Of a stretch of 62,601 nucleotides of DNA, positions 21,898-40,985 are shown piece after piece (the first letter of the stretch is position 1; each line of letters opens with the position of its first letter). The stretch lies in assembly GCA_017465475.1 (NCBI GenBank), contig JAFTWC010000033.1, forward strand, positions 1 through 62,601, given 5' to 3'. The notes under the pieces were generated by a model, which saw only the letters and a program-made list of their open reading frames with translations, searched no databases and was not told where the DNA came from. This DNA is from Lachnospiraceae bacterium (lineage in GTDB: Bacteria; Bacillota; Clostridia; Lachnospirales; Lachnospiraceae). The position numbers and the translations under genes are program-made.

Positions 21898-21930
21898 GCA
21901 AACCCTCTTTCCTGTGCAACTCCAAACCTA

Positions 21931-22356
21931 TCATGTCTGGAAAACCTTCATTGTCACCTTTGTACCGACTCCTATGGTCGTTTCTATGTTCATCTCATCG
22001 GAATATTGCTTCATATTCGGAAGTCCCATACCGGCACCGACTCCCAGTGCTCTCACTCTGTCCGGTGCGGTGGAATAACCGGCCTGCATGGCTTTTTCCA
22101 CGTCTGCAATACCCGGTCCGGAGTCCTGTAATACCATGGTAATTTCTTCCGGAGAGATTTCCACGTCAATGGTACCACCGTTAGCGTGAATAACCATATT
22201 AATTTCACCCTCGTACATGGCAATGGCCACTTTACGTACCGCTTCCGGAGAACTTCCCATTTGTTTTAATTTCCGTTTTACGTCACCGGAAGCCTCCCCA
22301 GCTCTTGTAAAATCTTCGGTAGAAACGGTATAGTGTAATTTAATCGTATCGCTCAT
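21931..22356 (-). CDS. Anti-sigma-like HATPase (RsbW-type fold)
   Basis: About 141 residues. GHKL ATP-binding motifs: YEGEINMVIHANGG (N-box), QDSGPGIADVEKAM (G1), GVGAGMGLPNMKQY (G2). Standalone HATPases of this type act as serine kinases or anti-sigma/antianti-sigma switches. No membrane or dimerisation domain. Context with the sensory Fe-S protein suggests it relays a redox or H2 signal. The start at 22356 is supported by GGGAGG. It overlaps the DRTGG gene by 17 bp. Confidence 0.82.
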   Translation of the reverse strand: MSDTIKLHYTVSTEDFTRAGEASGDVKRKLKQMGSSPEAVRKVAIAMYEGEINMVIHANGGTIDVEISPEEITMVLQDSGPGIADVEKAMQAGYSTAPDRVRALGVGAGMGLPNMKQYSDEMNIETTIGVGTKVTMKVFQT

Positions 22357-22702
22357 AATCCGTCCCTCCCCGTAAACCTTTTTCATAAAGAATTCCGCAG
22401 GCAGAAAACATACGATGTCCCGTGGCCAAAAGCGGAATTTCACGTTCATTGGCAAGACGAATCATTTCCTCATCCGGCTTTTTATTACGGACAAACACAA
22501 TACAAACAATGTCCATCATCTCTGCAGTACGAATAACCTGGGGATTACAAAGGCCGGTAAGAAGCACCGCCTGATCCTTTACAAAGGCCAATACATCACT
22601 CATCATATCGGAACCGCAAGCTGTATGTACCTCCTTGTCAAGCCATTCCTCTCCGCTCAGTACTCTCGCTCCCAGAGCCTCTTTAATCTCTAAGATTGTC
22701 AT
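22340..22702 (-). CDS. DRTGG-domain protein (second)
   Basis: 120 residues: LGARVLSGEEWLDKEVHTAC, GSDMMSDVLAFVKDQAVLLT, CIVFVRNKKPDEEMIRLANE. The order DRTGG-HATPase-Fe-S protein-DRTGG-PHP is the recognisable clostridial cluster. It is the first gene of the run; a minus-strand TATACT with a weak -35 lies about 70 bp upstream. Confidence 0.82.
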   Translation of the reverse strand: MTILEIKEALGARVLSGEEWLDKEVHTACGSDMMSDVLAFVKDQAVLLTGLCNPQVIRTAEMMDIVCIVFVRNKKPDEEMIRLANEREIPLLATGHRMFSACGILYEKGLRGGTDYERYD

Positions 22703-22835
22703 ACTTACACCATCCTTTCCTATATCATAACAACTTGTTTTTCAAACTAAAAAAAGGTATACACATAAAGTATACCACAATTTCATCAAAAATCCCAAGT
22801 TTTTTTAAAATTAAATATTTAACAAAGTTTTGTAC

Positions 22836-22887: not shown

Positions 22888-24492
22888 TTATAACTGCGGA
22901 CCTGCCTTAACAAGTGCCTTACCTGCATCGTTTCCGGTGTACTTATCAAAGTTCTTTACGAAACGAGCCGCAAGATCCTTTGCCTTAGTCTCCCACTCGG
23001 AAGCATCAGCGTAGGTGTTGCGCGGGTCCAAGATGTTGGTATCAACACCCGGAAGCTCGGTCGGTACTGCAAAATTGAAGTACGGAACAGTCTTGGTCTC
23101 TGCCTTTAAGATAGAACCGTCTAAGATGGCATCGATGATACCACGGGTATCCTTAATGGAGATACGCTTGCCGGTTCCGTTCCAACCGGTGTTTACAAGA
23201 TATGCCTTTGCACCGCTCTTCTCCATCTTCTTAACAAGTTCTTCCGCATACTTGGTCGGATGAAGCTCTAAGAATGCCTGACCGAAACAAGCAGAGAAGG
23301 TCGGGGTCGGCTCGGTAATACCGCGCTCGGTTCCTGCAAGCTTGGAAGTAAAGCCGGACAGGAAGTAGTACTGTGCCTGCTCCGGAGTTAATACGGAAAC
23401 CGGCGGAAGTACACCGAAAGCATCTGCAGAAAGGAAGATTACGTTCTTTGCATCCGGAGCTGCAGATACCGGACGAACAATCTTCTCAATGTGGTCAATC
23501 GGGTAAGATACACGGGTGTTCTCGGTCACGGAACCGTCTGCGAAATCACAAACACCGTTTGCATCTACGGTTACGTTCTCTAACAAAGCATTACGCTTAA
23601 TTGCATTGTAGATATCCGGCTCGGATTCCTTATCAAGATTGATAACCTTTGCATAACAACCGCCCTCGAAGTTGAATACGCCGTTGTCATCCCAACCGTG
23701 CTCGTCGTCACCGATTAAGAGACGCTTCGGGTCGGTGGAAAGGGTGGTCTTACCGGTACCGGAAAGACCGAAGAACAATGCGGTATTCTCGTTGTTCATA
23801 TCGGTGTTAGCGGAGCAGTGCATGGAAGCCATGCCGTTAAGCGGCAAGTAGTAGTTCATCATGGAGAACATACCCTTCTTCATCTCACCGCCGTACCAGG
23901 TGTTTAAGATAACCTGCTCACGGGAAGTAATGTTGAATGCAACAGCGGTCTCAGAGTTAAGACCAAGCTCCTTATAGTTCTCAACCTTTGCCTTGGAAGC
24001 GTTGTAGCATACGAAATCCGGCTTAAAGTTTGCTAACTCTTCTGCAGTCGGGTTAATGAACATGTTCTTTACAAAATGTGCCTGCCAAGCTACTTCCATG
24101 ATGAATCTGATTGCCATACGGGAATCTGCGTTGGTACCGCAGAATACATCCATAACATACAACTTCTTATCGGAAAGCTCGGAAATTGCAAGCTTCTTTA
24201 ATTCCTTCCAGGTTGCTTCGCTGCACGGATGATTGTCATTCTTGAACTCATCGGAGGTCCACCAAACGGTGTCCTTGGAATTCTCATCCATAACGATGAA
24301 CTTATCTTTCGGGGAACGTCCGGTGTAGATACCGGTCATTACGTTTACCGCACCGAGCTCAGTCTCCTGACCCTTTTCAAAGCCCTCAAGGCTCGGATCG
24401 GTTTCAGCTACGAACAGCTCCTCAAAAGACGGGTTGTGAATGATTTCTTTTGCATTCATAATGCCATACATTGTTAAATCAACATTTTTCAT
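22888..24492 (-). CDS. pckA: Phosphoenolpyruvate carboxykinase (ATP)
   Basis: 534 residues. Interconverts PEP + CO2 + ADP and oxaloacetate + [49 protein letters not shown] (kinase-1a/P-loop, about residue 243) and [15 protein letters not shown] are diagnostic. In an operon with malate dehydrogenase, fumarase and fumarate reductase it most likely works in the carboxylating direction, conserving ATP while feeding oxaloacetate to succinate, as in known succinate producers. It is the last gene of the run, followed by a strong terminator. Confidence 0.96.
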
Positions 24493-24516
24493 ACTTTCTA
24501 TACCCCTTTCTATTTT

Positions 24517-24843
24517 TTAAACCTCTTGACCTGCATCTCTTGCCTGGTCAAGCTTTGTATTGCGGAAATACAGCGCAACATCAATTGAAATCTCAATAAA
24601 GTTCAATACGTAGAAGAAGAAACTCAGATAGAATATAAATCCGCTGCTTCCCATAGCTGCCAGCTGTATACACTTACGAGCAATACCAAACGCATAACCG
24701 ATTAACAGAAACACTTCGAAAAACAAGCTCTTTCCCTTCGCAGTTCTTGAAACAAGCGATTTACGAATTGAAATCGGCCAGGAAAGACCGAAGCAGAAAA
24801 TAGTAAGCGCCTCAAAAAGATCAGTCAACATTCCTAAAGTCAT
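24517..24843 (-). CDS. Small PQ-loop/SemiSWEET-like membrane protein
   Basis: 108 residues with three predicted membrane helices (about 5-24, 39-56, 66-92). The first helix and loop (FCFGLSWPISIRKSL..., TAKGKSLFFEV) follow the SemiSWEET/PQ-loop pattern with WP replacing PQ. It sits between frdA and pckA with gaps of 22 and 24 bp, so it is cotranscribed with the succinate pathway. It could move a small metabolite or help anchor the reductase at the membrane; neither is shown. Confidence 0.6.
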   Translation of the reverse strand: MTLGMLTDLFEALTIFCFGLSWPISIRKSLVSRTAKGKSLFFEVFLLIGYAFGIARKCIQLAAMGSSGFIFYLSFFFYVLNFIEISIDVALYFRNTKLDQARDAGQEV

Positions 24844-24865
24844 AGTTTTATCTCCTTTTTATTAC

Positions 24866-26470
24866 CTATATATTTTTTGTTTTTGTATAGTTCGGAAGAA
24901 GCTTCGGAGACACCGTTTCGGTATTGATTCCTGCGCTCTCGATTTCCTTTTCAAACTTTTCAATATGTGCAAGAGTAAGCTTACCCAATGTCACATTCTT
25001 TGCCTTCGCTGCTGCATTGATACCTGCGCTTCTTCCGAATACGATAATATCAAGCAAAGAATTACCCATCAAACGGTTCTTACCGTGAATTCCTCCTACA
25101 GCCTCACCTGCAACGAACAGGTTCTGCACGTTGGTGGTCATACCGTCTGCGGTAATGTCGAGACCGCCGTTCTGGTAATGTAAGGTCGGATATACAAGAA
25201 TCGGCTCCTTACGGATATCGATGCCGTACTTTTCGAACATACGCATCATAGCCGGGATTCTCTTCTCGATGGTCCCCTCACCGCCGATTTTTTCAATCAT
25301 CGGTGTATCTAACCATACACCCAAACCGCTTCCGGTGTCAACACCATTCTCTCTTTCGGAGCACTCACGAATAATGGAAGCTGCTGCAACGTCACGGGTT
25401 TCCAACGGATGCATGAATACTTCGCCGTTACCGTTTACAAGCTTAGCTCCTAAGGAACGCACCTTCTCGGTTACAAGGGCACCGAAAATCTGCTCCGGAT
25501 AAGCTACGCCGGTCGGATGATACTGCAAGGTCTCCGCATAAAGAAGCTTTGCGCCAACTCTGTAACCGAGAACCAAACCGTCTGCGGTTGCACCGTAGTG
25601 GTTGGAAGTCGGGAAGCCCTGATAATGCATACGTCCTGCACCACCGGTTGCGATGATAACGGTCTTTGCCTTAGCCACCAGCAATTCCTTGGTTTCCATA
25701 TTCATAAGAACCGCACCTGCAGCATTGCCGTTTTCATCAAGAATTAACTCGATTGCAGCAGTAAAATCGATAACCGGAATGTTACGGTTGAATACTTCAT
25801 CACGAAGGGTTCTCATGATTTCCGCACCGGAATAGTCCTTCGCCGCATGCATACGCTTACGGGAAGTACCGCCGCCGTGGGTGGTTACCATGGTTCCGTC
25901 TGCATCCTTATCAAACTCAACGCCCAAATTGCTCAGCCACTGGATTGCCTCCGGTGCATCGCAAACGAGCTTGGCTAACAACTCTCTCTTTGCTGCAAAA
26001 TGACCGCCACCGAAAGCATCCACAAAGTGAATGGCCGGAGAATCATTCGGCTTATCGGCAGCCTGAATACCGCCCTCTGCCATCATGGTGTTTGCATCAC
26101 CGATACGAAGCTTGGTTACGATCATAACGTCTGCGCCTGCTTCATTTGCTTCGATTGCTGCGGATGCACCTGCACCGCCGCCACCGATAATCAATACATC
26201 GGTTTCGTAATCCGGCTTTGTAAGGTCAACGCTGTCTGCGGTAATACGACTGTGTGCCTGAAGAATCTCTGCAAGCTCTGTCGGTACCTTTTCTCCCTTA
26301 TTCGGACCGATTTTTAACTCAGCAAACTCATCCTTTTTATAGTCCGGATGAAATGCTGCAAGTAAATCTTCCTTCTGCTTTGCAGTCATACGCTCCGGCT
26401 CCAAAGCAATATTTTTCTCTCTTGCTGCTTCAACGGCAGCGATGGATTTCTGAAACTTTTCCGAATACAT
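24866..26470 (-). CDS. frdA: Fumarate reductase flavoprotein subunit, soluble type
   Basis: 534 residues, FAD-dependent reduction of fumarate to succinate. N-terminal extension of ~85 residues, then VLIIGGGGAGASAAIEA (FAD fold). THGGGTSRKRMHAAKD, LQYHPTGVAYPEQ (active-site His), TLHYQNGGLDI and the GKNRLMGNSLLDIIVFGR block match Frd/Sdh/NadB flavoproteins. The position of the FAD-binding His of membrane complex II (SHT) reads ANT (DANTMMAEGG), so FAD should be non-covalent. No classical membrane-anchor gene (frdC/D) is adjacent. It follows frdB by 12 bp. L-aspartate oxidase is the alternative, but the FrdB partner and pathway genes argue for fumarate reductase. Confidence 0.85.
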   Translation of the reverse strand: MYSEKFQKSIAAVEAAREKNIALEPERMTAKQKEDLLAAFHPDYKKDEFAELKIGPNKGEKVPTELAEILQAHSRITADSVDLTKPDYETDVLIIGGGGAGASAAIEANEAGADVMIVTKLRIGDANTMMAEGGIQAADKPNDSPAIHFVDAFGGGHFAAKRELLAKLVCDAPEAIQWLSNLGVEFDKDADGTMVTTHGGGTSRKRMHAAKDYSGAEIMRTLRDEVFNRNIPVIDFTAAIELILDENGNAAGAVLMNMETKELLVAKAKTVIIATGGAGRMHYQGFPTSNHYGATADGLVLGYRVGAKLLYAETLQYHPTGVAYPEQIFGALVTEKVRSLGAKLVNGNGEVFMHPLETRDVAAASIIRECSERENGVDTGSGLGVWLDTPMIEKIGGEGTIEKRIPAMMRMFEKYGIDIRKEPILVYPTLHYQNGGLDITADGMTTNVQNLFVAGEAVGGIHGKNRLMGNSLLDIIVFGRSAGINAAAKAKNVTLGKLTLAHIEKFEKEIESAGINTETVSPKLLPNYTKTKNI

Positions 26471-26482
26471 ATGCCATCCTCC

Positions 26483-27157
26483 TTACTTTTCGATTTCACG
26501 TGTGTTGTAAAGTTCTTTCATTTCCTCAATCGGCTTCTGCATCAAAGCTTCGATTAATTCATTGAAATCACCGTTTTTAATCTCTTTTACACGATCTTCA
26601 AGATGTCCGCAACCCGGTGCAAGATACTTGCCGTTAATTCTTCTTGCAAGCATTGCTACCTGCGGGTGGGAAATTCCTGCCGGGCATCTGGAGGAACATA
26701 CGCCACACATTACACAGTCAAAGGATTCTTCCGCACACTTCTCAAAGTCACCGCGCTGTGCATATGCAATATACTGCATTACGTTTAAGCCCTGGGTACA
26801 GCTCTTGGTACATGCATTACATCCGATACAAGCGTAAATTTCCGGATAAAGCTGCATCATAACAGACTCGGTTACCGGAATATTCTCAATATCATATACC
26901 TGCTTTACAAGCGGGAAGAATGGTAATGTAGCGATGTACATATTGTCCTCAACCTTGGTCTGGCAGGCAAGACAAGCCTTTAATTCCTTGTCTCCCTTAA
27001 TACGGTAAATGGTTGCACAAGCACCACAGAATCCGTTACGGCATCCGCAGCCTCTTACCAGCTGGTAGCCCGCATACTCCATGGCAGTCATAATTGTCAG
27101 GTTTTCCGGCACTTCGTACTTCTTACCGAAAAGAAAAATGCTAACTAATTTCTCCAT
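26483..27157 (-). CDS. frdB: Fumarate reductase iron-sulfur subunit
   Basis: 224 residues. N-terminal plant-type [2Fe-2S] domain (GCGCRNGFCGACATIY ... CLACQTK, about residues 35-75) and two CxxCxxCxxxC motifs (CIGCNACTKSC, about 112; CVMCGVCSSRC, about 149). This resembles SdhB/FrdB and the N-terminal part of methanogen TfrB, but lacks the C-terminal HdrB-like CCG domain of TfrB; a separate hdrB is in the same operon. It would pass electrons to FrdA. The gap to flxA is 12 bp. Confidence 0.85.
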   Translation of the reverse strand: MEKLVSIFLFGKKYEVPENLTIMTAMEYAGYQLVRGCGCRNGFCGACATIYRIKGDKELKACLACQTKVEDNMYIATLPFFPLVKQVYDIENIPVTESVMMQLYPEIYACIGCNACTKSCTQGLNVMQYIAYAQRGDFEKCAEESFDCVMCGVCSSRCPAGISHPQVAMLARRINGKYLAPGCGHLEDRVKEIKNGDFNELIEALMQKPIEEMKELYNTREIEK

Positions 27158-27169
27158 ATTATCTCTCCT

Positions 27170-28003
27170 TTAATACTCATCCGGAAGTTCATCCAGCTCA
27201 TCACAGCGGAATACCGGGCCGTCTTTGCAAACGTATTTAGCGCCTACGTTACATCTTCCGCATTTGCCGACGCCGCACTTCATTCGCAACTCAAGTGTCG
27301 TATAAATCTGGGTCTTGTCAAAGCCCATTGCGCACAAACCTTCTAAGGTAAACTTAATCATGATTGGCGGGCCGCACAAAACCGCAGTTTTATTTGTATC
27401 AAAGCCAAGTTCTTTTACATAGTTCGGTACAAATCCCACATGACCGTCCCAACCTTCCTGCGGGTTATCGATAGTCAGATGAACCTTTACTCCCGCATCG
27501 TTGGACCACTCTTCGATAATCTCCTTGTAATCAAGCAAATCATCTTTGCTTCTGGAACCATATACAATATCAATCTCGCCGTAACGGTCACGATAATGTC
27601 TGCAGTAATTAATTACCGAACGAAGGGGTGCCAAACCTACACCACCTGCAATGAAGAGAAGGTTCTTCCCTGCAAATACATCATCTACCGGGAACGGATT
27701 TCCGTACGGTCCTCTGATGGTAATTTGCTGACCTACTTCTGCCTGATGTAACCACTCGGTTACACATCCGCACTTCTTAATGGAAAACTCCATGTACTCT
27801 TCATTGGTCGGAGAGGAAGTAATAGAAAACATTGCCTCACCTACACCCGGAACGGAAAGCATCGCACACTGTCCCGGACGATGATCAAACGCCTTCTTTC
27901 CATCCGGTGTTACCACACGAAAAGTCTTAATATCCGGCGTATCAATTCTTACATCGGTAATGACACCAATCTTGGGAATTAAAGTATCTTCCATATTATT
28001 CAC
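27170..28003 (-). CDS. flxA: FlxA-like NAD(P)H/FAD oxidoreductase
   Basis: About 277 residues, ferredoxin-reductase fold as in anaerobic sulfite reductase B and PyrK. RPGQCAMLSVPGVGEAMFSI (FAD), IRGPYGNPFP, LFIAGGVGLAPLRSVI (NAD-binding), AVLCGPPIMIKF, and a C-terminal [2Fe-2S] motif (MKCGVGKCGRCNVGAKYVC). In the Flx-Hdr complexes described in Desulfovibrio this subunit oxidises NADH. The GTG at 28003 is preferred (GGAGGG 7 nt upstream); it overlaps the stop of flxB. Confidence 0.85.
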   Translation of the reverse strand: MNNMEDTLIPKIGVITDVRIDTPDIKTFRVVTPDGKKAFDHRPGQCAMLSVPGVGEAMFSITSSPTNEEYMEFSIKKCGCVTEWLHQAEVGQQITIRGPYGNPFPVDDVFAGKNLLFIAGGVGLAPLRSVINYCRHYRDRYGEIDIVYGSRSKDDLLDYKEIIEEWSNDAGVKVHLTIDNPQEGWDGHVGFVPNYVKELGFDTNKTAVLCGPPIMIKFTLEGLCAMGFDKTQIYTTLELRMKCGVGKCGRCNVGAKYVCKDGPVFRCDELDELPDEY

Positions 28004-29024
28004 TTGCTTTCCCTCCAATCTTTTTCATTACTTTTACGATATTCATGGATATCGGACACTTAGACAAGCAACGGCCGCAACCTACGCAACTGAACAATCC
28101 GTCGTTGTTTTCCGGATAATACACCAGCTTGTGCATAAAGCGCTGACGGAACCGTTCTTTCTGGGTAAGTCTGTTGTTTCCGTGTGCCATCTTGGTAAAC
28201 TCGGAATACATACAGGAGTCCCAACATCTGTATCGAATCACACCGTTTCCGGTGTTAAAATCCTTAATATCATAACACTGACAAGTCGGGCAAACGAAAG
28301 TACAGGTTCCGCATCCGAGGCAGGCCTGAGAAAGCTCATCCCATTCCGGAGCATCAAAAAGTTCCTTGGTCTTACCGCCACCGAATCCATCGGTAGTCAG
28401 GTCTTTCAGCGGAAGCTTGTTCATGATAGCGGCAATCTTTTCCTTCTGTGCGTTTACCGTCTCTTCTCCGCACTCCTCGGTCAAACCGGAAAGCTTGCTC
28501 ATAAGAGCCTCGCCCTTCTCGGTATTCGCACGGAAGAACACTTCGGTTTCGGTCTTCCATATGGAAACATCTCCGGCCGGTTCCGCCGGATTGATACCGA
28601 AGGTCTGGCAGAAACAGGTTTCTGCCGGTCTGCCGCAGGCAACGGCAACAATGGTACCGTGCTGACGCTTAGACGCATAGTAACTGTCTACCGGCTCCTT
28701 TATGAAGACTCTGTCCAGTACCTCAAAGCTCTTTACATCACAAGCCCGTACACCAAACACTACAAAATCTTCCATTTCGCTTCTGGTATCAATAACCTCG
28801 ATATTTTTACCGGAGGTCTTAAACTCCATTAAATCTTCGGTCTGCGGAAAGAAGAAATCCTTCGGACTTTTCACCGTATTTAAGGCATTACTCCAGGTAA
28901 GACCCTCTTCCCACTTGGTATAGGTAGCTGCTCCGTCGGTTCCGTCTACCGGAAGATAGAGGGAAGCTGCCTTGGAAATTTCTGCAAACACAGAATTAAT
29001 TGAATCAAGAGAACATTTACGCAT
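27996..29024 (-). CDS. flxB: FlxB-like [4Fe-4S] protein (AsrA-like)
   Basis: About 342 residues. FGVRACDVKSFEVLDRVF and GRPAETCFCQTFGI in the N-terminal part, then two ferredoxin motifs (CLGCGTCTFVCP, about residue 231, and CVGCGRCLSKCP, about 316). The pattern matches sulfite reductase subunit A-like proteins, which occur as FlxB next to FlxA. No siroheme-binding subunit (AsrC) is present, which argues against sulfite reduction. AGGAGG before the ATG at 29024; overlaps flxC by 8 bp. Confidence 0.8.
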   Translation of the reverse strand: MRKCSLDSINSVFAEISKAASLYLPVDGTDGAATYTKWEEGLTWSNALNTVKSPKDFFFPQTEDLMEFKTSGKNIEVIDTRSEMEDFVVFGVRACDVKSFEVLDRVFIKEPVDSYYASKRQHGTIVAVACGRPAETCFCQTFGINPAEPAGDVSIWKTETEVFFRANTEKGEALMSKLSGLTEECGEETVNAQKEKIAAIMNKLPLKDLTTDGFGGGKTKELFDAPEWDELSQACLGCGTCTFVCPTCQCYDIKDFNTGNGVIRYRCWDSCMYSEFTKMAHGNNRLTQKERFRQRFMHKLVYYPENNDGLFSCVGCGRCLSKCPISMNIVKVMKKIGGKASE

Positions 29025-30015
29025 TGGTATCCCTCCTGTCAAAAACTTCACCCGGTTCCAAATCCTCTGTGGTATAATCCACAAGCGGAGCACGGGAACC
29101 AACCTCGGCACCTGCCTGATACTCTCCGTAGAACTCGTTCATATCCTTAATGAATTTACGGTTTAATAAGTGAAGCGGAATATTCTGCGGACATACTCTG
29201 GAACACTCGCCGCAATCGGTGCAACGACCTGCCACGTGGTATGCTCTGATAATGTGGAACATCTTTTCCTCAAAGCTGTTTGCCGGAGCCTTATTCTCCA
29301 CACCGGAATTCGGGTTATCGAATACACACTTCTCACAGGTACATGCCGGACATGCATCACGACATGCGTTACAGCGGATACAACGGGAAAGCTCGTTTTG
29401 CCAGAATGCAAATCTCTCGTCCGGAGTCATTGCCTCTAACTTTTCAACTTCGTCAAAACGATTGGAGTCGATCACTTCGCCTTCCTCGCCTAATAATTCA
29501 TCATATGCAACATGCTTCTTACTCTTGCAGTTTACACATCTTTCAGCAAGCACCTCTGCCGTAGCAACCTCCACCGGCTGCTCCTCATAAAGAGTAGTAA
29601 CCAAAAGCTTGTCGCCGCCGCAATCAACGGAAGAGATTCCCTCACCGCAGATTGCCTTTACCTTTGCGATATCTACCATCCCTTCACACGGAATACCCAC
29701 GGCATATACCTTTTCTCTGTCGAATCTGTGCTCGGTTAACAACTGATTGAAGCTGTAAGTGTCACACGGCTTCAAGAACACCAGCATCTTGCCTTCCAGA
29801 CGATCCATCTTTGCTACAAGATACTTGGAGAAGTTCGCACCACAGAAATCGTTCCATACAAAATTCTCTTTTAACTCTGCCTCAGTCTTAAACACTGCCG
29901 GAGTAACGTCGTAATCGAACTCACCCTTACTCCAACCGAGTACAGCCGTTACAGTTCCGTCTGCGAGCAGAGAAACTGCTTTGTCTAATAATTGATCACG
30001 TGTTATCGTTTGCAT
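29017..30015 (-). CDS. flxC: FlxC-like [4Fe-4S] protein
   Basis: 332 residues. The N-terminal part (FLKPCDTYSFNQLLTEHRF, VYAVGIPCEGMVDIAK) resembles the F420-hydrogenase/dehydrogenase beta-subunit fold. A C-rich middle (RCVNCKSKKHVAYDE) is followed by CIRCNACRDACPACTCEKC (about residue 213) and CTDCGECSRVCP (about 267). It probably conducts electrons between the NADH-oxidising FlxA and HdrA. It overlaps mvhD by 13 bp and flxB by 8 bp, suggesting coupled translation of complex subunits. Confidence 0.78.
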   Translation of the reverse strand: MQTITRDQLLDKAVSLLADGTVTAVLGWSKGEFDYDVTPAVFKTEAELKENFVWNDFCGANFSKYLVAKMDRLEGKMLVFLKPCDTYSFNQLLTEHRFDREKVYAVGIPCEGMVDIAKVKAICGEGISSVDCGGDKLLVTTLYEEQPVEVATAEVLAERCVNCKSKKHVAYDELLGEEGEVIDSNRFDEVEKLEAMTPDERFAFWQNELSRCIRCNACRDACPACTCEKCVFDNPNSGVENKAPANSFEEKMFHIIRAYHVAGRCTDCGECSRVCPQNIPLHLLNRKFIKDMNEFYGEYQAGAEVGSRAPLVDYTTEDLEPGEVFDRRDTNA

Positions 30016-30437
30016 CGCAGGTCCTCCAATCTCTTATTCGGTCCGAGAGCCGTTACCTTTTCCACGAAATCGTTCATGGTAGCGGCAAACTTTGCGCCTT
30101 CTGCTGCGGATACCCATTCCACACGGGTACGTTCCTTCTCAATTCCGAGGAAATCAAGCATGGAAAACAATGCAGCCATACGGCGACGTGTATAATAGTT
30201 ACCGGACGTATAATGACAGTCGCCCGGATGACAACCGCAAAGGATGACTCCGTCCGCACCTCTCTGGAATGCGCGTAAAATGAACATCGGATTTACACGA
30301 CAGGAGCAAGGTACGCGGATGATTTTTACATCTGCCGGATAGTTCAGGCGGTTGTTACCTGCAAGGTCTGCGCCTGCATAAGAACACCAGTTACAGCAAA
30401 ACGCAACAATTAACGGTTTAAATTCATTTACTTGCAT
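30003..30437 (-). CDS. mvhD: MvhD/FlxD-type electron-transfer subunit
   Basis: 144 residues. The [2Fe-2S] cysteines are seen in AFCCNWCSYAGADLAG, IRVPCSCRVNPMFIL and ILCGCHPGDCHYTSGN, the MvhD signature. In methanogens MvhD links the hydrogenase to HdrA; in bacteria FlxD links FlxABC to HdrA. No [NiFe]-hydrogenase large subunit is nearby, so NADH through FlxA is the likely donor. GGAGG upstream of the ATG at 30437. Confidence 0.9.
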   Translation of the reverse strand: MQVNEFKPLIVAFCCNWCSYAGADLAGNNRLNYPADVKIIRVPCSCRVNPMFILRAFQRGADGVILCGCHPGDCHYTSGNYYTRRRMAALFSMLDFLGIEKERTRVEWVSAAEGAKFAATMNDFVEKVTALGPNKRLEDLRCKR

Positions 30438-32422
30438 ATTGCATCCACCTCCGCCATAATTTGATTATTTGCAAAGCCTCTTAAGTCCATAGCACCGGAC
30501 GGACATGCAACCGTACAACATCCGCATCCCTGACATACTGCCGGATTTACGGAAGCCACTCTTCTTACCTTCGTAGTTCTGTCAGGCATACGGAATTCCT
30601 TATCCACATAAGTAATTGCACCGTACGGACATACACGCTCACAGGAAGAACAGCCGTTACACATAAGCTCATTGGAACTTGCCACACACGGGTTGCCGGT
30701 AAGCTTATCCTTTGCAAGGAGGCCGATTACCTTAGAAGCTGCCGCACCTGCCTGGGAAACGGTTTCCGGTATATCCTTCGGTCCCTGACATGCACCGGAT
30801 AAAAATACACCTGCTGTCGGGCTTTCTACCGGTCTTAACTTCGGATGTGCCTCTGTGAAGAAGTCGTTGGTATCCATACTTGCGGTCAACATGGTAGCTA
30901 ACGGGCGGGCAGTCTGATCCGGCTCAATAGCAGCTGCCAATACCACAAGGTCTGCATCAATATGAAGCTGCTTGTTTGCAATAAGATCGGAAGCCTGTAC
31001 CTTTAACTTCTTGCCCTCCGGAGTTACCTTACCTACCATACCCTTCACATACTTCACGCCGTATTCTTCTACTGCACGGCGATAGAACTCGTCAAAGTTC
31101 TTACCCGGGGTTCTGACATCGATATAGAATACATATACCTCGGTATCCGGATATTTATCTCTGGTTAACATCGCATGCTTTGCGGTGTACATACAACAAA
31201 TCTTGGAACAGTATTCCTTACCCTTTTCCGCACAGGAATCACAACGGGAACCTACGCACTGTACAAATACAATGGTATGCGGATGCTCATGGTCGGACGG
31301 ACGAAGTAACTTTCCGGCAGTCGGACCTGCAGCGTTGGTCAAACGCTCGAACTCAAGAGAAGTAATAACGTCCTTGGACTGATTGTAAGCAAACTCATCA
31401 AACTTCTCCATGCTGATCGGATTGAAACCGGTTGCAACAACAATTGCGCCGTACTTCTCTTCGATGTATTCGTCCTTCTGGGTGTAATCAATAGCTCCTG
31501 CTGCACAAACCTTCGCACAAAGACCACACTTACCGTTCTTAAGCATGTTACATGCATTCGGGTCAATGGTGGCCACCTTCGGTACTGCCTGAGCAAACGG
31601 AATGTAGATCGCACTGCGGTTATCCATACCAAGGTTGAACTCGTTCGGAACCTTTTTCATCGGACACTTCTCTACACAGGCACCGCAACCGGTACAAATA
31701 TCTTCTTTTACAAAACGGGCATTTTTCTTAATTGTAACATCGAAGTTACCTACAAAGCCCTTTACATCTGTTACTTCACTGTAAGAGAAAATACGAATCT
31801 TTTCATTCTGTGCCACATCTACCATCTTCGGGGTCAAAATACAAGCTGCACAGTCCAAAGTCGGGAATGTCTTATCAAGCTGTGCCATCTTACCACCGAT
31901 GGTCGGCTTCTTCTCTACAATATCTACTTCAAATCCCGCATCCGCAATATCAAGTGCAGTCTGAATACCGGCAATACCGCCGCCGATTACAAGCGCACGC
32001 TTCGTTACCGGAGACTCACCCGGAGTAAGTGGGGTGTTTAAATTCACTTTCGCAACGGCAGCCTTACCGAGGATAATTGCCTTCTCGGTACCTGTCATCA
32101 TATCCTTGTGAACCCAGGAACACTGTTCTCTGATGTTCGCAATTTCTACCATGTACGGATTCAATCCTGCCGCAGCTGCGGTCTTACGGAAGGTTGCTTC
32201 ATGCATTCTCGGAGAACAGGAACATACTACGATACCGGTCAGATTATGCTCTTTTACCGCATCGATAATCATATTCTGTCCTGCCTGGGAACACATATAT
32301 TGATAATTGGTGGAAAAGACAACTCCCGGCTCGTTCTTTAACGCTTCGGATACTGCCTGCACATCAACCGTGCCTGCAATGTTACTTCCGCACCAACATA
32401 CAAAAACGCCAACTCTTTGCAT
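30428..32422 (-). CDS. hdrA: Heterodisulfide reductase-like subunit A (bifurcating flavoprotein)
   Basis: About 664 residues. N-terminal FVCWCGSNIAG and VVCSCSPRMHEATF, an FAD domain (RALVIGGGIAGIQTALDIAD), the TLDCAACILTPKM motif, ferredoxin motifs in the middle (CTGCGACVEKCP, CGLCAKVCAAG) and at the C-terminus (CNGCSSCERVCP, CQGCGCCTVACP). HdrA carries the bifurcating FAD: electrons from MvhD/Flx are split between ferredoxin and the HdrBC branch. The ATG at 32422 follows AAGGAGG; an upstream in-frame extension overlaps hdrC and is disregarded. Confidence 0.92.
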   Translation of the reverse strand: MQRVGVFVCWCGSNIAGTVDVQAVSEALKNEPGVVFSTNYQYMCSQAGQNMIIDAVKEHNLTGIVVCSCSPRMHEATFRKTAAAAGLNPYMVEIANIREQCSWVHKDMMTGTEKAIILGKAAVAKVNLNTPLTPGESPVTKRALVIGGGIAGIQTALDIADAGFEVDIVEKKPTIGGKMAQLDKTFPTLDCAACILTPKMVDVAQNEKIRIFSYSEVTDVKGFVGNFDVTIKKNARFVKEDICTGCGACVEKCPMKKVPNEFNLGMDNRSAIYIPFAQAVPKVATIDPNACNMLKNGKCGLCAKVCAAGAIDYTQKDEYIEEKYGAIVVATGFNPISMEKFDEFAYNQSKDVITSLEFERLTNAAGPTAGKLLRPSDHEHPHTIVFVQCVGSRCDSCAEKGKEYCSKICCMYTAKHAMLTRDKYPDTEVYVFYIDVRTPGKNFDEFYRRAVEEYGVKYVKGMVGKVTPEGKKLKVQASDLIANKQLHIDADLVVLAAAIEPDQTARPLATMLTASMDTNDFFTEAHPKLRPVESPTAGVFLSGACQGPKDIPETVSQAGAAASKVIGLLAKDKLTGNPCVASSNELMCNGCSSCERVCPYGAITYVDKEFRMPDRTTKVRRVASVNPAVCQGCGCCTVACPSGAMDLRGFANNQIMAEVDAICK

Positions 32423-32435
32423 TTGCCTTTCCTCC

Positions 32436-32822
32436 TTACTTACTGTACTTTCTGAACGCACTAACAATTGCCTGCTGCGGCATCTCGTCATCTAATAATG
32501 CCGGAACATCATTTGCAGTCATATGATTTGCGCCCTGCTTCCGAATGGCCGTTAACCGAACTGCTTCCACAAGCTTCGCCGGCTCTACCCCTCTCGGGCA
32601 ACGCTCGATACATGCAAAGCAGGATAAGCACTTATATAACGACTCGGACTTAAGAAGCGGTTCAATATCTCCGCTCTCTACCATATTTACAAACTGATGC
32701 GGATGATATTCCATCTCATCGTATGCCGGACAGGATGCGGAACACTTACCGCAACGCATACACTTGCTCGGATTCACTCCGCTCATACGAATAATTTCTT
32801 CCTGAAGATACGTCTTATGCAT
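32436..32822 (-). CDS. hdrC: Heterodisulfide reductase-like subunit C
   Basis: 128 residues, two [4Fe-4S] motifs (CMRCGKCSASCPAYDE, about residue 21; CLSCFACIERCPRG, about 64). It connects HdrA to HdrB. The start is supported by AGGAGG. It overlaps hdrB by 8 bp and ends 13 bp before the hdrA start. Confidence 0.9.
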   Translation of the reverse strand: MHKTYLQEEIIRMSGVNPSKCMRCGKCSASCPAYDEMEYHPHQFVNMVESGDIEPLLKSESLYKCLSCFACIERCPRGVEPAKLVEAVRLTAIRKQGANHMTANDVPALLDDEMPQQAIVSAFRKYSK

Positions 32823-33606
32823 TGGTATCCTCCTTTACTCCGAGGGCTTCCGCCAAAAGCTCGGTGAAATAAACTACCGGAATGTCTGTGCCGTTTTTCA
32901 TCAGGTTATAGCGGCAAAGCGGACATGCGGTAATAATCATCTCCGCACCGGCAGCCTTTGCGTTCTCAACCACTTCATTGCTGTTTTTCTTTGCAAGTTC
33001 CGGGCTTTCCATTGCGATATAACCGCCGCAACATTCGTTACGCTTTGCATATACCACCGGAGTTGCACCCAGGGCTGCAATCAAATCCTCCATAATGGTC
33101 GGATTCTCTGCATCATCCATCTGCATTACCTTACTCGGTCTTAACAACAGACAGCCGTAATATGCAGCAATCTTCTTACCGGTTAACGCATTGACTACCT
33201 TTTCCTTTACGGCATCAAAGCCCACCATGTCACGAAGCATTTCCAGATAGTGAACTACCTCTGCCTCACCGGCATACGGGGTTTCGTTTGCCATGTATCT
33301 GTTTACCTTATCGGCAAATTCCTTCTCGTTCTGCATCGCATGGTTCGTCTGCTTAATCACATTATGACAGGCGGAGCATACGGTAACAAGCGGCTGTTCC
33401 TTCTCTGCGGCCTCTTTTAATGCGCGAACGGAAGAAAGCTTTGTTGCCACTTCGTTCTTTGCGGTTGTAAACACACCGCCGCAACACTGCCAATTCTCGA
33501 TTTCTTCAAGGGTAACACCTAAAGCTTCGGCAGACTTGTACGCATAGGTATCTAAGTCTTTTGCCTTATTCTTTAAGGTACACCCCGGGAAATAACTAAC
33601 TTTCAT
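32815..33606 (-). CDS. hdrB: Heterodisulfide reductase-like subunit B
   Basis: 263 residues with two CCG domains: FPGCTLKNK, NWQCCGG, CSACHN in the first, and YGCLLLRP, NECCGGYIA, CPLCRYN in the second. These bind the non-cubane [4Fe-4S] clusters that cleave heterodisulfides in methanogens. What the high-potential acceptor is here is open. No DsrC gene, the proposed bacterial partner, is in the window; fumarate reductase genes in the same operon make fumarate, via FrdB, the best candidate. Confidence 0.9.
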   Translation of the reverse strand: MKVSYFPGCTLKNKAKDLDTYAYKSAEALGVTLEEIENWQCCGGVFTTAKNEVATKLSSVRALKEAAEKEQPLVTVCSACHNVIKQTNHAMQNEKEFADKVNRYMANETPYAGEAEVVHYLEMLRDMVGFDAVKEKVVNALTGKKIAAYYGCLLLRPSKVMQMDDAENPTIMEDLIAALGATPVVYAKRNECCGGYIAMESPELAKKNSNEVVENAKAAGAEMIITACPLCRYNLMKNGTDIPVVYFTELLAEALGVKEDTNA

Positions 33607-33621
33607 CTCATTACCTCCAGT

Positions 33622-34998
33622 TTATACCATTTCTTCCGGGTGGAATACTTCGTCAAACTTTTCAGCAGTTAAAAAGCCCAGTTCGACACATGCCTCTTTC
33701 AGTGAAATATTATCCTTGAATGCCTTCTTTGCGGTCTTTGCGGCATTCTCGTATCCGATATACGGATTCAGTGCGGTAACAAGCATCAGGGAGTTATGCA
33801 GGTTGTGATGCATCTTTTCCTTGTTTGCCTTAATACCTACAGCACAGTTCTTATTAAAGGAAACAATTGCCTCAGCAAGCAATCTTGCGGACTGAAGGAA
33901 GTTGTAAATACATACCGGCATAAATACGTTAAGCTCGAAGTTACCCTGAGATGCTGCCATACCTACAGCCACATCGTTACCCATTACCTGTACGGCAACC
34001 ATGGTAACCGCCTCACACTGGGTCGGATTTACCTTGCCCGGCATAATAGAAGAGCCCGGCTCGTTCTCCGGAATGAAAATCTCCCCAAGACCATCTCTCG
34101 GGCCGGATGCCAACCAACGAACGTCGTTTGCAATCTTCATCATATCGCAGGCAAGTGCCTTGATTGCACCGTGTGCAAATACAAGCTCGTCCTTGGAGGT
34201 CAGAGCATGGAACTTATTTGCTGCGGTCTTAAACGGCTTACCGGTAATCTTGCCAACCTCATCAGCAACCTTCTCAGCGAAGGAAGCCGGAGCATTTAAG
34301 CCGGTTCCTACTGCGGTACCGCCTAAAGCAAGCTCGTAAAGCGGCTCGATGGAACGACGAATTAATTCTACGTCCTTCTCCAAGCTGGAACGCCATCCGC
34401 TGATTTCCTGGCTGAACTTAATCGGAGTAGCATCCTGTAAGTGGGTTCTGCCGCTCTTTACGATGCCTTCGTTCTCCTCTTCCAGTCTCTTAAACGTAGC
34501 AATCAGGGTCTCTGCTGCCGGAATCAGCTTATCTTCCAAAGTCAATACCGCTGCAATGTGCATTGCCGTCGGGAATGTATCGTTAGAGGACTGACTCATA
34601 TTGGAATCGTCGTTCGGATGAAGCAACTTCTTTCCTAAAATCTGGTTTCCTCTGTTTGCAATCACTTCGTTTGCATTCATGTTGGACTGGGTGCCGGAAC
34701 CGGTCTGCCAAACAACGAGCGGGAAGTTTGCATTTAACTTACCTTCCATAATCTCATCGCAAGCCGCCTTAATGGCACCAAGCTTCTCATCCGTCATCTT
34801 CTCCGGACGTAAGCTGTTATTTGTAATTGCCGCTGCCTTCTTCAATACACCGAATGCATGAATAATTTCAGCCGGCATGGTTTCGATACCTACACCGATT
34901 TCAAAGTTCTCGTGGCTTCTCTGTGTCTGTGCTGCCCAAAGACAATCTGCCGGAACCTTCATTTCACCCATAGAGTCATGTTCAATACGATATTCCAT
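33622..34998 (-). CDS. fumC: Fumarate hydratase, class II
   Basis: About 458 residues. Malate to fumarate + water in the cytoplasm. WQTGSGTQSNMNANEV, GRTHLQDATPIKFSQE, and the superfamily signature GSSIMPGKVNPTQCEAV (about residue 315) are diagnostic of oxygen-stable fumarases. An ATG at 34998 and a GTG at 35004 are both possible with AAAGGA upstream. It sits between mdh and hdrB (gaps 33 and 15 bp). Confidence 0.95.
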   Translation of the reverse strand: MEYRIEHDSMGEMKVPADCLWAAQTQRSHENFEIGVGIETMPAEIIHAFGVLKKAAAITNNSLRPEKMTDEKLGAIKAACDEIMEGKLNANFPLVVWQTGSGTQSNMNANEVIANRGNQILGKKLLHPNDDSNMSQSSNDTFPTAMHIAAVLTLEDKLIPAAETLIATFKRLEEENEGIVKSGRTHLQDATPIKFSQEISGWRSSLEKDVELIRRSIEPLYELALGGTAVGTGLNAPASFAEKVADEVGKITGKPFKTAANKFHALTSKDELVFAHGAIKALACDMMKIANDVRWLASGPRDGLGEIFIPENEPGSSIMPGKVNPTQCEAVTMVAVQVMGNDVAVGMAASQGNFELNVFMPVCIYNFLQSARLLAEAIVSFNKNCAVGIKANKEKMHHNLHNSLMLVTALNPYIGYENAAKTAKKAFKDNISLKEACVELGFLTAEKFDEVFHPEEMV

Positions 34999-35031
34999 TT
35001 TCACTTCATCCTTTCTATATTTATGTATGTT

Positions 35032-35973
35032 CTATATATTAAGACCCTTAATTAAATCCTTCAATACGCCTGCGCTGTTATGAAGTGCCGCAACTTCCTC
35101 TCCGTTAAGCGGAAGCATAATCTTGCTGTGAGCTCCCTTATTGCCTACCACATTTAATAAGCTTAAGCATACATCGCTGATACCGTATTCCCCATTTAAT
35201 AAGGTAGATACCGTAAGCGTCGTATCGATGCCCTTTAAGAGACACTGAATTACATGACATACGGATACGGATACTGCATAGAAGGTCGCTCCCTTACGCT
35301 GAATGACCCGGGCTCCGGACTTGCGCACATAATTCTCTACTTCATCACGTTTGAACTCCGGATATTCTACCTTATTTAAAATAGCATTACGATAGCTTTC
35401 TACCGGCACATTGGAAATATTTGCAATGGACCACGGTACAAAAGAACTGTCGCCGTGCTCACCCAGCACATATGCATGTACATTCTTCTGGTTCACATCG
35501 TAATACTCTGCAATTCTCGCACGGAGTCTTGCGGTATCCAAAATGGTACCGGAACCGATGACACGCTCCTGCGGAAGACCGGTGTGCTTTAGGAACACAT
35601 AAGTCAAAATGTCTACCGGGTTACTTACAATCACATAGGTAGCGTCCGGTGCCACCGGAACAATCTGGTCTGCAATCTCTTTTATAATGTCTACATTGGT
35701 CTGGGCAAGGTCAAGTCTGGACTGACCGGCTTTTCTTGCCATACCGGATGTGATAACCACAATATCCGAATCCTTTGCATCTTCATATGTACCGGCATAA
35801 ATATTAACCGGATTACAGAAAGGAACACCCTGTCTGATATCAAGCGCCTCTCCAAGTGATTTTTCATGATTTACATCGATCATAACAATTTCTGATGCAA
35901 GTCCCATAATCGTAAGCGTATACGCAATGGTGGAACCTACATTTCCTGAACCGATTACCGTAATCTTGTTCAT
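35032..35973 (-). CDS. mdh: Malate dehydrogenase of the LDH-like fold
   Basis: About 313 residues. Oxaloacetate + NADH to malate. Rossmann motif VIGSGNVGSTIAYTL, catalytic LGEHGDSSFVPW (His), NPVDILTYV. Overall it is closest to bacterial L-lactate dehydrogenases, but the substrate-specificity loop reads MARKAGQSRLDLA, with Arg where LDH has Gln102, the residue that selects C4 dicarboxylates. It is also first in an operon with fumarase and fumarate reductase. The start at 35973 follows GAGGTG. Annotation as lactate dehydrogenase would be an error if the Arg assignment is right. Confidence 0.82.
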   Translation of the reverse strand: MNKITVIGSGNVGSTIAYTLTIMGLASEIVMIDVNHEKSLGEALDIRQGVPFCNPVNIYAGTYEDAKDSDIVVITSGMARKAGQSRLDLAQTNVDIIKEIADQIVPVAPDATYVIVSNPVDILTYVFLKHTGLPQERVIGSGTILDTARLRARIAEYYDVNQKNVHAYVLGEHGDSSFVPWSIANISNVPVESYRNAILNKVEYPEFKRDEVENYVRKSGARVIQRKGATFYAVSVSVCHVIQCLLKGIDTTLTVSTLLNGEYGISDVCLSLLNVVGNKGAHSKIMLPLNGEEVAALHNSAGVLKDLIKGLNI

Positions 35974-36027: not shown

Positions 36028-36056
36028 ATTATAATACTTTTTTCTACATTTTTCAA
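36028..36056 (-). promoter_or_regulatory. Promoter of the mdh-to-pckA operon
   Basis: Minus strand TTGAAA (36056-36051), 17-bp spacer, TATAAT (36033-36028), 55 bp upstream of mdh. No other good promoter was seen in the small gaps down to pckA. Confidence 0.7.
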
Positions 36057-36095: not shown

Positions 36096-37517
36096 CTATT
36101 TTAATACAGATATTGCGTCACCGATGGTCTTCTCCAACGCCTCTCTTCCGTACTTATCCACCTCGGCTTTATTTTTTTCGCCGTGGGTCAAACAACCTGC
36201 ACCTCCGATACAACCTCCCACACAAGCCATGCCCTCAATAAAATTAGCATCCAGTACATTTTTACTTTTCTTTAAAAGGGCTGCCTTACATGCCTCAATA
36301 CCATCACAGGACACTGCTTTTACATCAAATTCGATGTTCTGCTCTTTTAATGCCTGGACAACAGCCTCAGAGAGACCACCGGTACGTGCAAAAATTCTTC
36401 CGAAATAGGATGCATTATCCAATACATCTTCGCCCAGTGTTGTAATATCAATATCCTTGCTGTCATATAATGCCTGTAATTCTTCAAAAGTCAGCACGGA
36501 ATCCACATAAGGTTTTACATTTTCTAACTTCAGTTCTGCTTTCTTTGCCGTGCAAGGTCCGATAAAAATAACCTTGGCGTTCTCATCCCTTTCCTTAATA
36601 TACTTTGCAAGAGCACCCATCGGAGATAGATTATGAGATACAAGCGGTAACAACTCCGGAAACGCCGACTTAATATAAGAAACAAAAGCCGGGCAACAGG
36701 AGCTTGTTAAAAATCCCTTTTCCACAAGTTCTTTGGATTCTGTCTGTGCCACCATATCGGCACCCAAAGCTGCTTCCACCACCGTATAGAAACCAAGTTC
36801 CTTTAATCCCTTAATTACCTGACCGAGCTTTGCATAGGTAAACTGACTGGAAATGGACGGTGCTACCAATGCATACACCTTATACTTTTTATTATTCTCG
36901 CTTTTTTTAATAATGTCAATGGCATCCAATATGTAAGACTTATCCATAATCGCTCCGAACGGACACTGGTACACACAGGCACCACAGGAAATACACTTCT
37001 CATTATCGATGGCTGCAGAGTTATTTTTATTAATGGAAATTGCCTTTACTTTACATGCATTCTGGCACGGCCGCTTTCGATTCACGATTGCAGAATACGG
37101 ACATACTTTTGCGCACTGGCCGCATTCCACACACTTAGACTTATCAATATGTGCCACATGATTATGGTCAAAAGAAAGCGCTCCCCGTTTACATACATCC
37201 TCACAACGATGTGCCAGACAACCACGGCAAGAATCCGTTACCTCGTAACCTGCGGACGGACATTCATCACACGCAATATCAATTACTTCGATTACGTTAG
37301 GGTTCTCTTTATCACCCCCCATCACCACTTTCACACGTTCCGCCAGAATCGCTCTTTCTTTGTATACGCAGCAACGCATGGTAGGTGTTTTCCCCGGAGC
37401 AATCATCTCCGGTATATCCAGAACCTTTTCTAAAAGAGTATCGTTCCACGCATGTCTTGCCACTTCGCGAAGCACCTTGTATTTTAAGTGCTGTACCTTT
37501 GTATCAAACTTTCTCAT
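36096..37517 (-). CDS. [FeFe]-hydrogenase, group B type
   Basis: 473 residues. N-terminal Cys-rich part (CDECPSAGYEVTDSCRGC), several [4Fe-4S] motifs (CVECGQCAKVCP, CISCGACVYQCP), then the H-domain with L1 SSCCPAFVSY, L2 IGPCTAKKAE and L3 EGMACVGGCIGGAG. The TSCCPAF-type L1 and lack of an N-terminal [2Fe-2S] domain mark group B, commonly ferredoxin-linked and poorly characterised. Last gene of a minus-strand operon with sensory and phosphatase genes (18-bp gap to the phosphatase). Confidence 0.9.
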   Translation of the reverse strand: MRKFDTKVQHLKYKVLREVARHAWNDTLLEKVLDIPEMIAPGKTPTMRCCVYKERAILAERVKVVMGGDKENPNVIEVIDIACDECPSAGYEVTDSCRGCLAHRCEDVCKRGALSFDHNHVAHIDKSKCVECGQCAKVCPYSAIVNRKRPCQNACKVKAISINKNNSAAIDNEKCISCGACVYQCPFGAIMDKSYILDAIDIIKKSENNKKYKVYALVAPSISSQFTYAKLGQVIKGLKELGFYTVVEAALGADMVAQTESKELVEKGFLTSSCCPAFVSYIKSAFPELLPLVSHNLSPMGALAKYIKERDENAKVIFIGPCTAKKAELKLENVKPYVDSVLTFEELQALYDSKDIDITTLGEDVLDNASYFGRIFARTGGLSEAVVQALKEQNIEFDVKAVSCDGIEACKAALLKKSKNVLDANFIEGMACVGGCIGGAGCLTHGEKNKAEVDKYGREALEKTIGDAISVLK

Positions 37518-37535
37518 CGCCGTTTGCTCCTTATT

Positions 37536-40380: not shown

Positions 40381-40388
40381 AGTCGTCT

Positions 40389-40643
40389 CTACCTTTCATT
40401 CAATACTGCAAGGATTTTTCCATCAAAAAACTCCTTGAAATTTTCACGGGTAACTCCTGTACAAACCACGTCATCCACCAGGATTGTTACACCCTGGCGA
40501 TTGCATTGTCCGCTACAAAAACACCCTGCCAACGCAACTTCATCTTGTAACTTATGTACCTCAACAGCCTTTGTAAACAGCTCTATTATTTCCGGTGCTC
40601 CCTTCACATGGCAAGCACTCCCCACACAAATCTGAACCAACAT
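40389..40643 (-). CDS. Small [2Fe-2S] thioredoxin-like ferredoxin (second)
   Basis: 84 residues: ICVGSACHVKGAPEI, then LAGCFCSGQCNRQGVTI. Four Cys in the C-x(4-6)-C ... C-x3-C layout of NuoE-like [2Fe-2S] domains. It lies 1 bp after a paralogue and 8 bp before hydS, suggesting electron delivery to or from the hydrogenase-like proteins. The ATG at 40643 is preferred. Confidence 0.85.
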   Translation of the reverse strand: MLVQICVGSACHVKGAPEIIELFTKAVEVHKLQDEVALAGCFCSGQCNRQGVTILVDDVVCTGVTRENFKEFFDGKILAVLNER

Positions 40644-40644
40644 A

Positions 40645-40890: not shown

Positions 40891-40956
40891 TTTACTTTCT
40901 CCTTTCATGCTGAATGACAATGTTATTTTTTTGACAATCTTTTTCTTTAATTTTAC

Positions 40957-40985
40957 ATTATATCACAGTCTTCGTCTAAATGCAA
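40957..40985 (-). promoter_or_regulatory. Promoter of the hydS operon
   Basis: Minus strand TTGCAT (40985-40980), 17-bp spacer, TATAAT (40962-40957), 67 bp upstream of the first ferredoxin gene. Confidence 0.7.

What the first reader, a model, noticed from the sequence alone, without database searches (positions are those of the whole stretch)
22888..35973. Hdr-Flx electron-bifurcation module built into a complete succinate-forming operon
Thirteen minus-strand genes with gaps of at most about 33 bp, many overlapping, and a single visible promoter encode MDH, fumarase, HdrBCA, MvhD, FlxCBA-like proteins, FrdB, FrdA, a small membrane protein and PEPCK. Known families: HdrA bifurcates electrons; Flx feeds NADH electrons to HdrABC (described with DsrC as a proposed partner in Desulfovibrio); methanogen TfrAB is a soluble fumarate reductase with an HdrB-like domain. 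Here no dsrC, no [NiFe]-hydrogenase and no frdC/D anchor are adjacent. I infer a soluble complex in which NADH reduces fumarate and, by bifurcation, ferredoxin. That would save energy otherwise lost in NADH-fumarate electron transfer, with the neighbouring hydrogenases disposing of the reduced ferredoxin.
Basis: partly seen in the sequence, partly recalled or inferred. Interest (0 to 1): 0.88.

Follow-up and report, generated by a model that had tools for sequence, protein, structure and literature searches.

The report
Hdr-Flx-fumarate reductase operon, already proposed
A gut Clostridia bacterium carries a 13-gene operon that joins a presumed electron-splitting enzyme (Hdr-Flx) to a soluble fumarate reductase; the layout is real and recurs in many gut Clostridia, but the same arrangement and idea were published in 2019-2020, and biochemical proof was not found here.

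Summary
In detail: mdh-fumC-hdrBCA-flxDCBA-frdBA-(small membrane gene)-pckA, one strand, gaps of at most 27 bp, a near-consensus promoter in front and a terminator-like hairpin behind. The nine-gene core hdrBCA-flxDCBA-frdBA is a true unit: 22 of the 24 genomes of the order with FrdB also have HdrA (295 searched), and in 80 named Clostridia loci all nine genes stand in the same order in 65 and are cut only by contig ends in 15. The window's genome (89% complete) shows no UbiA (so probably no quinones), SdhC-type cytochrome, [NiFe] hydrogenase, DsrC or second FrdA. A soluble NADH:fumarate reductase with ferredoxin as second acceptor is therefore the best reading, with FrdB docking on HdrBC; five loci of other groups keep hdrCB-frdB without an adjacent hdrA. 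But it is not new: the 'succinate operon' of Pseudoclostridium thermosuccinogenes has the same layout and hypothesis in print. Bifurcation remains unproven. In a phylum-wide sample the link is looser: 17 of 38 frdBA loci have no neighbouring hdr/flx genes. Rnf, not only hydrogenase, could re-oxidise the ferredoxin.

The parts
35032..35973 (-). mdh, LDH-like malate dehydrogenase
   Evidence: seen in 50 of 80 related loci
33622..35004 (-). fumC, class II fumarase (711.6 bits, cut-off 664.75)
   Evidence: seen in 60 of 80 related loci
32815..33606 (-). hdrB, two complete CCG motifs (non-cubane cluster sites)
32436..32822 (-). hdrC, two 4Fe-4S motifs
30428..32422 (-). hdrA (ORF opens at 32491; homology begins about 32422), near full-length match to methanogen HdrA 5odc_A
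30003..30437 (-). flxD / MvhD-like protein
29017..30015 (-). flxC-like 4Fe-4S protein
27996..29111 (-). flxB, AsrA/HydB-like (GTG start uncertain; lengths of relatives suggest a start near 29030)
27170..28018 (-). flxA, FAD/NAD(P)-binding reductase with DHODB-type Fe-S domain
26483..27157 (-). frdB, [2Fe-2S] domain plus two 4Fe-4S motifs, no HdrB-like domain
24866..26470 (-). frdA, TfrA/SdhA-family flavoprotein with conserved N-terminal extension of about 88 residues; match to the TfrA model ends at 427 of 546, so most of the C-terminal domain is missing; covalent-FAD His replaced
24517..24843 (-). small membrane protein of unplaced family
22888..24492 (-). pckA, ATP-type PEP carboxykinase
36028..36056 (-). 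sigma-70-like promoter TTGAAA-17-TATAAT
   Evidence: consensus match only
22756..22776 (-). terminator-like stem and T run
   Evidence: pattern match only

Best explanation
The operon makes a soluble NADH:fumarate/ferredoxin oxidoreductase. FlxA takes hydride from NADH; FlxB, FlxC and FlxD pass electrons to the flavin of HdrA; HdrA sends one electron of each pair to ferredoxin and the other through HdrC and the HdrB clusters to FrdB and on to the FAD of FrdA, which reduces fumarate. FrdB takes the place that the heterodisulfide or DsrC has in other Hdr complexes. PEPCK, MDH and fumarase supply fumarate from PEP and CO2. Reduced ferredoxin then drives Rnf and/or [FeFe] hydrogenases. Shown by sequence: the genes, their order, the conserved cluster and active-site residues, the absences in the held genome. 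Inferred: complex formation, direction, the HdrB-FrdB contact, and bifurcation itself.
For: Nine core genes in the same order in 65 of 80 named loci, the other 15 cut by contig ends, none different. In 295 genomes of the order FrdB occurs in 24, HdrA in 24, both in 22 (Fisher p 8.7e-29, not corrected for relatedness). Of 23 order loci besides the window, 17 are colinear, 3 cut by contig ends, 2 split into divergent halves, 1 unlinked. HdrB-FrdB contact: HdrB matches residues 262-487 (50 bits) and FrdB residues 19-149 (36 bits) of the TfrB model, so TfrB looks like a fusion of the two; 5 phylum-level loci have hdrC-hdrB-frdB without adjacent hdrA. HdrB has both CCG motifs in 65 of 65 full-length relatives and in 20 of 20 order-level rows. 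In HdrA the Lys aligned to K409 of 5odc_A (role recalled) is kept in 66 of 66, and so are the Cys except at 4, 124, 417, 420, 658 and 686. FrdA residues aligned to E. coli SdhA active-site positions (H318, T334, E335, R338, R359, H431, R466; roles recalled) are invariant in the 30 rows of A2, i.e. the window and 29 of 73 usable relatives. Own genome: no UbiA (found in 14 of 14 controls), Sdh_cyt (7 of 14), [NiFe] hydrogenase (5 of 14) or DsrC (1 of 14); one FrdA, one HdrB. Energetics allow it: 2 NADH + fumarate + 2 Fd gives about -49 kJ/mol at Fd -420 mV, -33 at -500 mV (potentials recalled). In P. thermosuccinogenes 85% H2 almost abolished succinate, as ferredoxin coupling predicts (passage of PMC7282089).
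Against: No biochemistry of this complex was found. The MetFV-HdrABC-MvhD complex of Moorella did not reduce ferredoxin (passage of PMC8578096), so an Hdr module does not prove bifurcation. 17 of 38 phylum-level frdBA loci have no adjacent hdr/flx; 4 of 39 FrdB genomes there have no HdrA hit, 108 of 143 HdrA genomes no FrdB. Rnf is less frequent among carriers (14 of 24) than non-carriers (220 of 271; my count, p 0.015). In P. thermosuccinogenes Na2S had the opposite effect to H2, and under CO2 limitation the operon rose about 4-fold while Rnf fell about 2-fold. In tubeworm symbionts tfrAB was the exception to the shared expression pattern of the Hdr-Flx cluster (passage of PMC11636981). The genome is 88.8% complete, so single absences are weak.
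Confidence: 0.62

Rival explanations
1. Same complex, no bifurcation: Hdr-Flx is a soluble wire from NADH to FrdB and ferredoxin is not a partner.
For: Moorella MetFV-HdrABC-MvhD showed no ferredoxin reduction (passage of PMC8578096). Plain NADH-fumarate transfer is strongly exergonic (-68 kJ/mol).
Against: HdrA keeps the cluster Cys and the Lys aligned to K409 of a methanogen HdrA (role recalled); so elaborate a wire would be wasteful (inference); the H2 effect on succinate in P. thermosuccinogenes.
Confidence: 0.2
2. HdrB reduces a disulfide (small thiol or protein) and FrdAB is re-reduced by that thiol, so the two enzymes are coupled by a carrier and do not touch.
For: HdrB keeps both CCG motifs; methanogen TfrAB uses thiols (recalled); DsrC is the proposed carrier in Desulfovibrio (passage of PMC10920352).
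Against: No DsrC above cut-off in 295 genomes of the order, one 21.9-bit match below it; FrdB has no HdrB-like domain; hdrCB-frdB clusters.
Confidence: 0.1
3. FrdAB works alone with another donor (ferredoxin or other) and shares the operon only for joint regulation.
For: 17 of 38 phylum-level loci have frdBA without neighbouring hdr/flx; several of them lie beside fumarase, malic enzyme, pyruvate carboxylase, sucCD or, in L209, a NapC-type cytochrome.
Against: Strict colinearity in all 65 uncut loci; joint presence and absence in the order.
Confidence: 0.08

Closest known systems
'Succinate operon' of Pseudoclostridium thermosuccinogenes (PMC7282089, passages read; Koendjbiharie and van Kranenburg 2019 preprint, seen only as an entry in its reference list)
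   Same: Fumarase, Flx-Hdr genes (locus-tag range of seven), two fumarate reductase genes and a hypothetical, possibly transporter, gene in one operon; same bifurcation hypothesis
   Different: Here mdh in front and pckA behind are in the same gene run; the sequences of that strain were not compared
FlxABCD-HdrABC of Desulfovibrio vulgaris (described in passages of PMC10920352; the original paper not read)
   Same: Same seven subunit types, NADH as donor
   Different: Proposed acceptor there is DsrC; here no DsrC and an FrdAB pair instead
TfrAB thiol:fumarate reductase of methanogens
   Same: The best NCBIfam match of FrdA is TfrA; TfrB looks like FrdB plus HdrB in one chain
   Different: Scores far below the TfrA/TfrB cut-offs; HdrB is a separate gene
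rTCA cluster of tubeworm symbionts (tfrAB with flxABCD-hdrABC, passages of PMC6315080 and PMC11636981)
   Same: Hdr-Flx genes interspersed with a soluble fumarate reductase, same idea of direct transfer
   Different: Carbon fixation, korABCD included
MetFV-HdrABC-MvhD of Moorella (passage of PMC8578096)
   Same: Hdr module joined to another substrate reductase
   Different: Methylene-THF reductase; ferredoxin reduction not found

Membership tests
P. thermosuccinogenes-type succinate operon | fumarase + hdr/flx genes + two frd genes + hypothetical gene in one run | tested here: met
   against the gene list in a figure legend
P. thermosuccinogenes-type succinate operon | fumarate reduction coupled to ferredoxin reduction | not testable with these tools
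   a hypothesis there too
FlxABCD-HdrABC | all seven subunit types clustered | tested here: met
FlxABCD-HdrABC | HdrB with two CCG motifs, full-length HdrA | tested here: met
FlxABCD-HdrABC | DsrC as acceptor (proposed for Desulfovibrio; not required of all members) | tested here: not met
   no DsrC in own genome; 0 of 295 above cut-off, one 21.9-bit match below it
TfrAB thiol:fumarate reductase | reaches the curated TfrA and TfrB score cut-offs | tested here: not met
   TfrA 346.7 of 718; TfrB 36.1 of 385
TfrAB thiol:fumarate reductase | HdrB-like domain within TfrB | tested here: not met
   absent from FrdB; a separate gene here
Quinol:fumarate reductase / succinate dehydrogenase | membrane anchor and quinone | tested here: not met
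   no Sdh_cyt and no UbiA in the held genome (88.8% complete); FrdC/FrdD models were not searched
Fumarate reductase (catalytic subunit) | active-site residues | tested here: met
   (roles recalled)

The most novel reading that the evidence does not exclude
FrdAB is a plug-in electron acceptor for Hdr complexes: FrdB binds HdrBC and replaces the heterodisulfide, and in gut Clostridia without quinones the nine-gene complex together with Rnf amounts to a quinone-free fumarate respiration that conserves energy through ferredoxin. Other groups of the phylum keep the same FrdAB with other inputs (HdrCB alone, a double HdrA, perhaps NapC-type cytochromes).
Probability: 0.45. Interest if true: 0.75.

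Novelty: new member of a known kind. Interest (0 to 1): 0.5.

Why it matters
How anaerobes without quinones reduce fumarate without wasting the energy of NADH is unsettled, and succinate is an important product in the ruminant gut (general knowledge). If it works as proposed it ties succinate formation to the ferredoxin and hydrogen economy there. It also offers a test of whether HdrA bifurcates when its high-potential acceptor is an enzyme and not a disulfide.

Tried and rejected
Quinol:fumarate reductase was rejected (no Sdh_cyt, no UbiA). DsrC as partner was rejected for this order. A plain lactate dehydrogenase reading of the first gene was set aside because of the Arg in the specificity loop (recalled rule). 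Rnf as an obligatory partner is not supported: carriers have it less often than non-carriers (some carriers are incomplete genomes). The small membrane protein could not be placed: no Pfam family in the window's copy at E 1e-3 or better; among 12 relatives PQ-loop matches 2 (best E 0.0054), YMF19 4 (0.023), CTP_transf_1 2 (1.5e-4); in the PDB only ion channels at E 0.15 or worse. A literature search for PQ-loop/SemiSWEET with succinate found nothing. FrdA structure prediction was accepted but not finished at the last poll, so no fold evidence is used. Distance correlations between FrdA and Hdr/Flx proteins are 0.75-0.84, lower than among the Hdr/Flx proteins (0.84-0.91), over 20 loci; without a control for species history this decides nothing.
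Full report
WHAT IS THERE. The 13 genes stand on the minus strand between 35988 and 22888: mdh, fumC, hdrB, hdrC, hdrA, flxD, flxC, flxB, flxA, frdB, frdA, a small membrane-protein gene and pckA. The largest gap is 27 bp and five junctions overlap. A near-consensus promoter lies in front of mdh and a terminator-like hairpin behind pckA, though such hits in the region as a whole are at chance level. Three refinements: hdrA begins near 32422 inside its longer ORF, flxB probably starts inside the listed ORF, and the 'MDH' belongs to the LDH-like family but has the malate-type Arg (rule recalled).

IS IT A UNIT? Yes for the nine genes hdrBCA-flxDCBA-frdBA. By title they are Clostridia, Oscillospiraceae, Ruminococcus and the like, nearly all MAGs; 41 of 80 titles name a ruminant gut sample, others name horse, reindeer or chicken or give no source. 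All 80 have flxA-frdB-frdA; 65 have all nine genes in order and the remaining 15 are cut by the contig end; none departs. fumC is seen in 60, mdh in 50, the small membrane gene (same strand) in 13, pckA in 3; flanks were limited to 10 kb and contig ends, which lowers these counts. In 295 genomes of the same order FrdB (E at most 1e-10) occurs in 24 and HdrA (E at most 1e-80) in 24, both in 22; the window is one of them. Of 23 loci besides the window, 17 are colinear, some with insertions between genes, 3 are cut, 2 are split into hdrBCA-flxDC and flxBA-frdBA facing apart, and 1 has no hdr/flx beside it and its HdrA on another contig.

LIMITS OF THE LINK. In 398 genomes sampled over the phylum FrdB (E at most 1e-25) occurs in 39, HdrA in 143, both in 35. 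Of 38 loci besides the window, 5 have the full Hdr-Flx set (four of them in the order frdBA-hdrBCA-flxDCBA), 11 have hdrA-type genes with flxD and a weak flxC match but no flxA/flxB (two of these cut by contig ends), 5 have hdrC-hdrB-frdB only (frdA cut off in one; these five genomes have HdrA elsewhere), 17 have no hdr/flx neighbour. Profile scans of ten proteins chosen from five loci found fumarase and malic enzyme (L181), pyruvate carboxylase (L186) and succinyl-CoA ligase (L187) next to frdBA, in L209 an FMN-binding Fe-S protein and a NapC-type cytochrome, and in L205 an HdrA-like protein of 1076 residues; similar neighbours in further loci were recognised by eye only. So FrdAB looks like a C4-pathway enzyme that can take several electron inputs.

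HOW IT PROBABLY WORKS. FrdA aligns to SdhA/FrdA proteins from about residue 85, keeps the residues aligned to the E. coli SdhA active site, has another residue in place of the His that binds FAD covalently, and its match to the TfrA model ends at 427 of 546. The N-terminal extension is shared by all 24 rows (shorter in L048). FrdB has a [2Fe-2S] and two 4Fe-4S motifs whose Cys are invariant in the 18 sequences of A1, 18 of the 24 order-level hits, and no HdrB-like domain. HdrB matches the part of the TfrB model that FrdB lacks, which with the hdrCB-frdB clusters makes HdrB-FrdB the likely contact. HdrA is a near full-length relative of methanogen HdrA. The genome shows no UbiA, Sdh_cyt, [NiFe] hydrogenase, DsrC, second FrdA or second HdrB, with the reserve that it is 88.8% complete. 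It has two RnfC-type hits, so ferredoxin could be re-oxidised by Rnf with ion transport as well as by hydrogenases; but 10 of 24 carriers have no RnfC hit. Bifurcation is allowed by the energetics but nowhere shown.

PRIOR ART. PMC7282089 (passages read) describes the 'succinate operon' of P. [quoted passage not shown] PMC6315080 and PMC11636981 (passages) propose transfer from Hdr-Flx to a thiol:fumarate reductase in tubeworm symbionts. No paper describing this cassette in gut Clostridia appeared in the listings or in the passages read (open-licence PMC only; most listed papers were not opened, among them PMC12887300 and PMC10504309).

VERDICT. What is added here: how common and how rigid the cassette is in gut Clostridia, the lack of quinone, anchor and DsrC genes in the same genome, the hdrCB-frdB intermediates, and the looser linkage in other groups.

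Noticed in passing
window 36096-46421: Upstream of the operon: group B1 [FeFe] hydrogenase, SpoIIE-type phosphatase, [FeFe]-hydrogenase protein with a weak PAS match (sensory-like), NuoE-like, HATPase, NuoF-like and an A6-type [FeFe] hydrogenase. A B1-like match is within the held flank in 13 of 80 related loci. Resembles the H2-sensing cluster described for Ruminococcus albus (passage of PMC6776011).
   Followed up: partly
window 20611-22702: Downstream of pckA: another [FeFe]-hydrogenase-like protein, a SpoIIAB-like anti-sigma factor and a DRTGG-domain protein, so the operon sits between two putative hydrogenase sensor modules.
   Followed up: no
window 24517-24843: Small membrane protein with invariant SWP, GKS and RN residues in 12 relatives and only weak, conflicting family matches; candidate transporter, not shown.
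   Followed up: partly
L205 4744-7971: HdrA-like protein of 1076 residues beside a normal HdrA, flxD and frdBA; the same layout recurs in other genomes of one family outside the window's class.
   Followed up: partly
window 55518-61949: Two GH10 genes, one fused to an esterase domain, and two further esterase-domain genes: a likely fibre-degradation cluster.
   Followed up: no
L042: frdB and frdA about 3.5 kb apart with no hdr/flx beside them, although the genome has HdrA on another contig.
   Followed up: no
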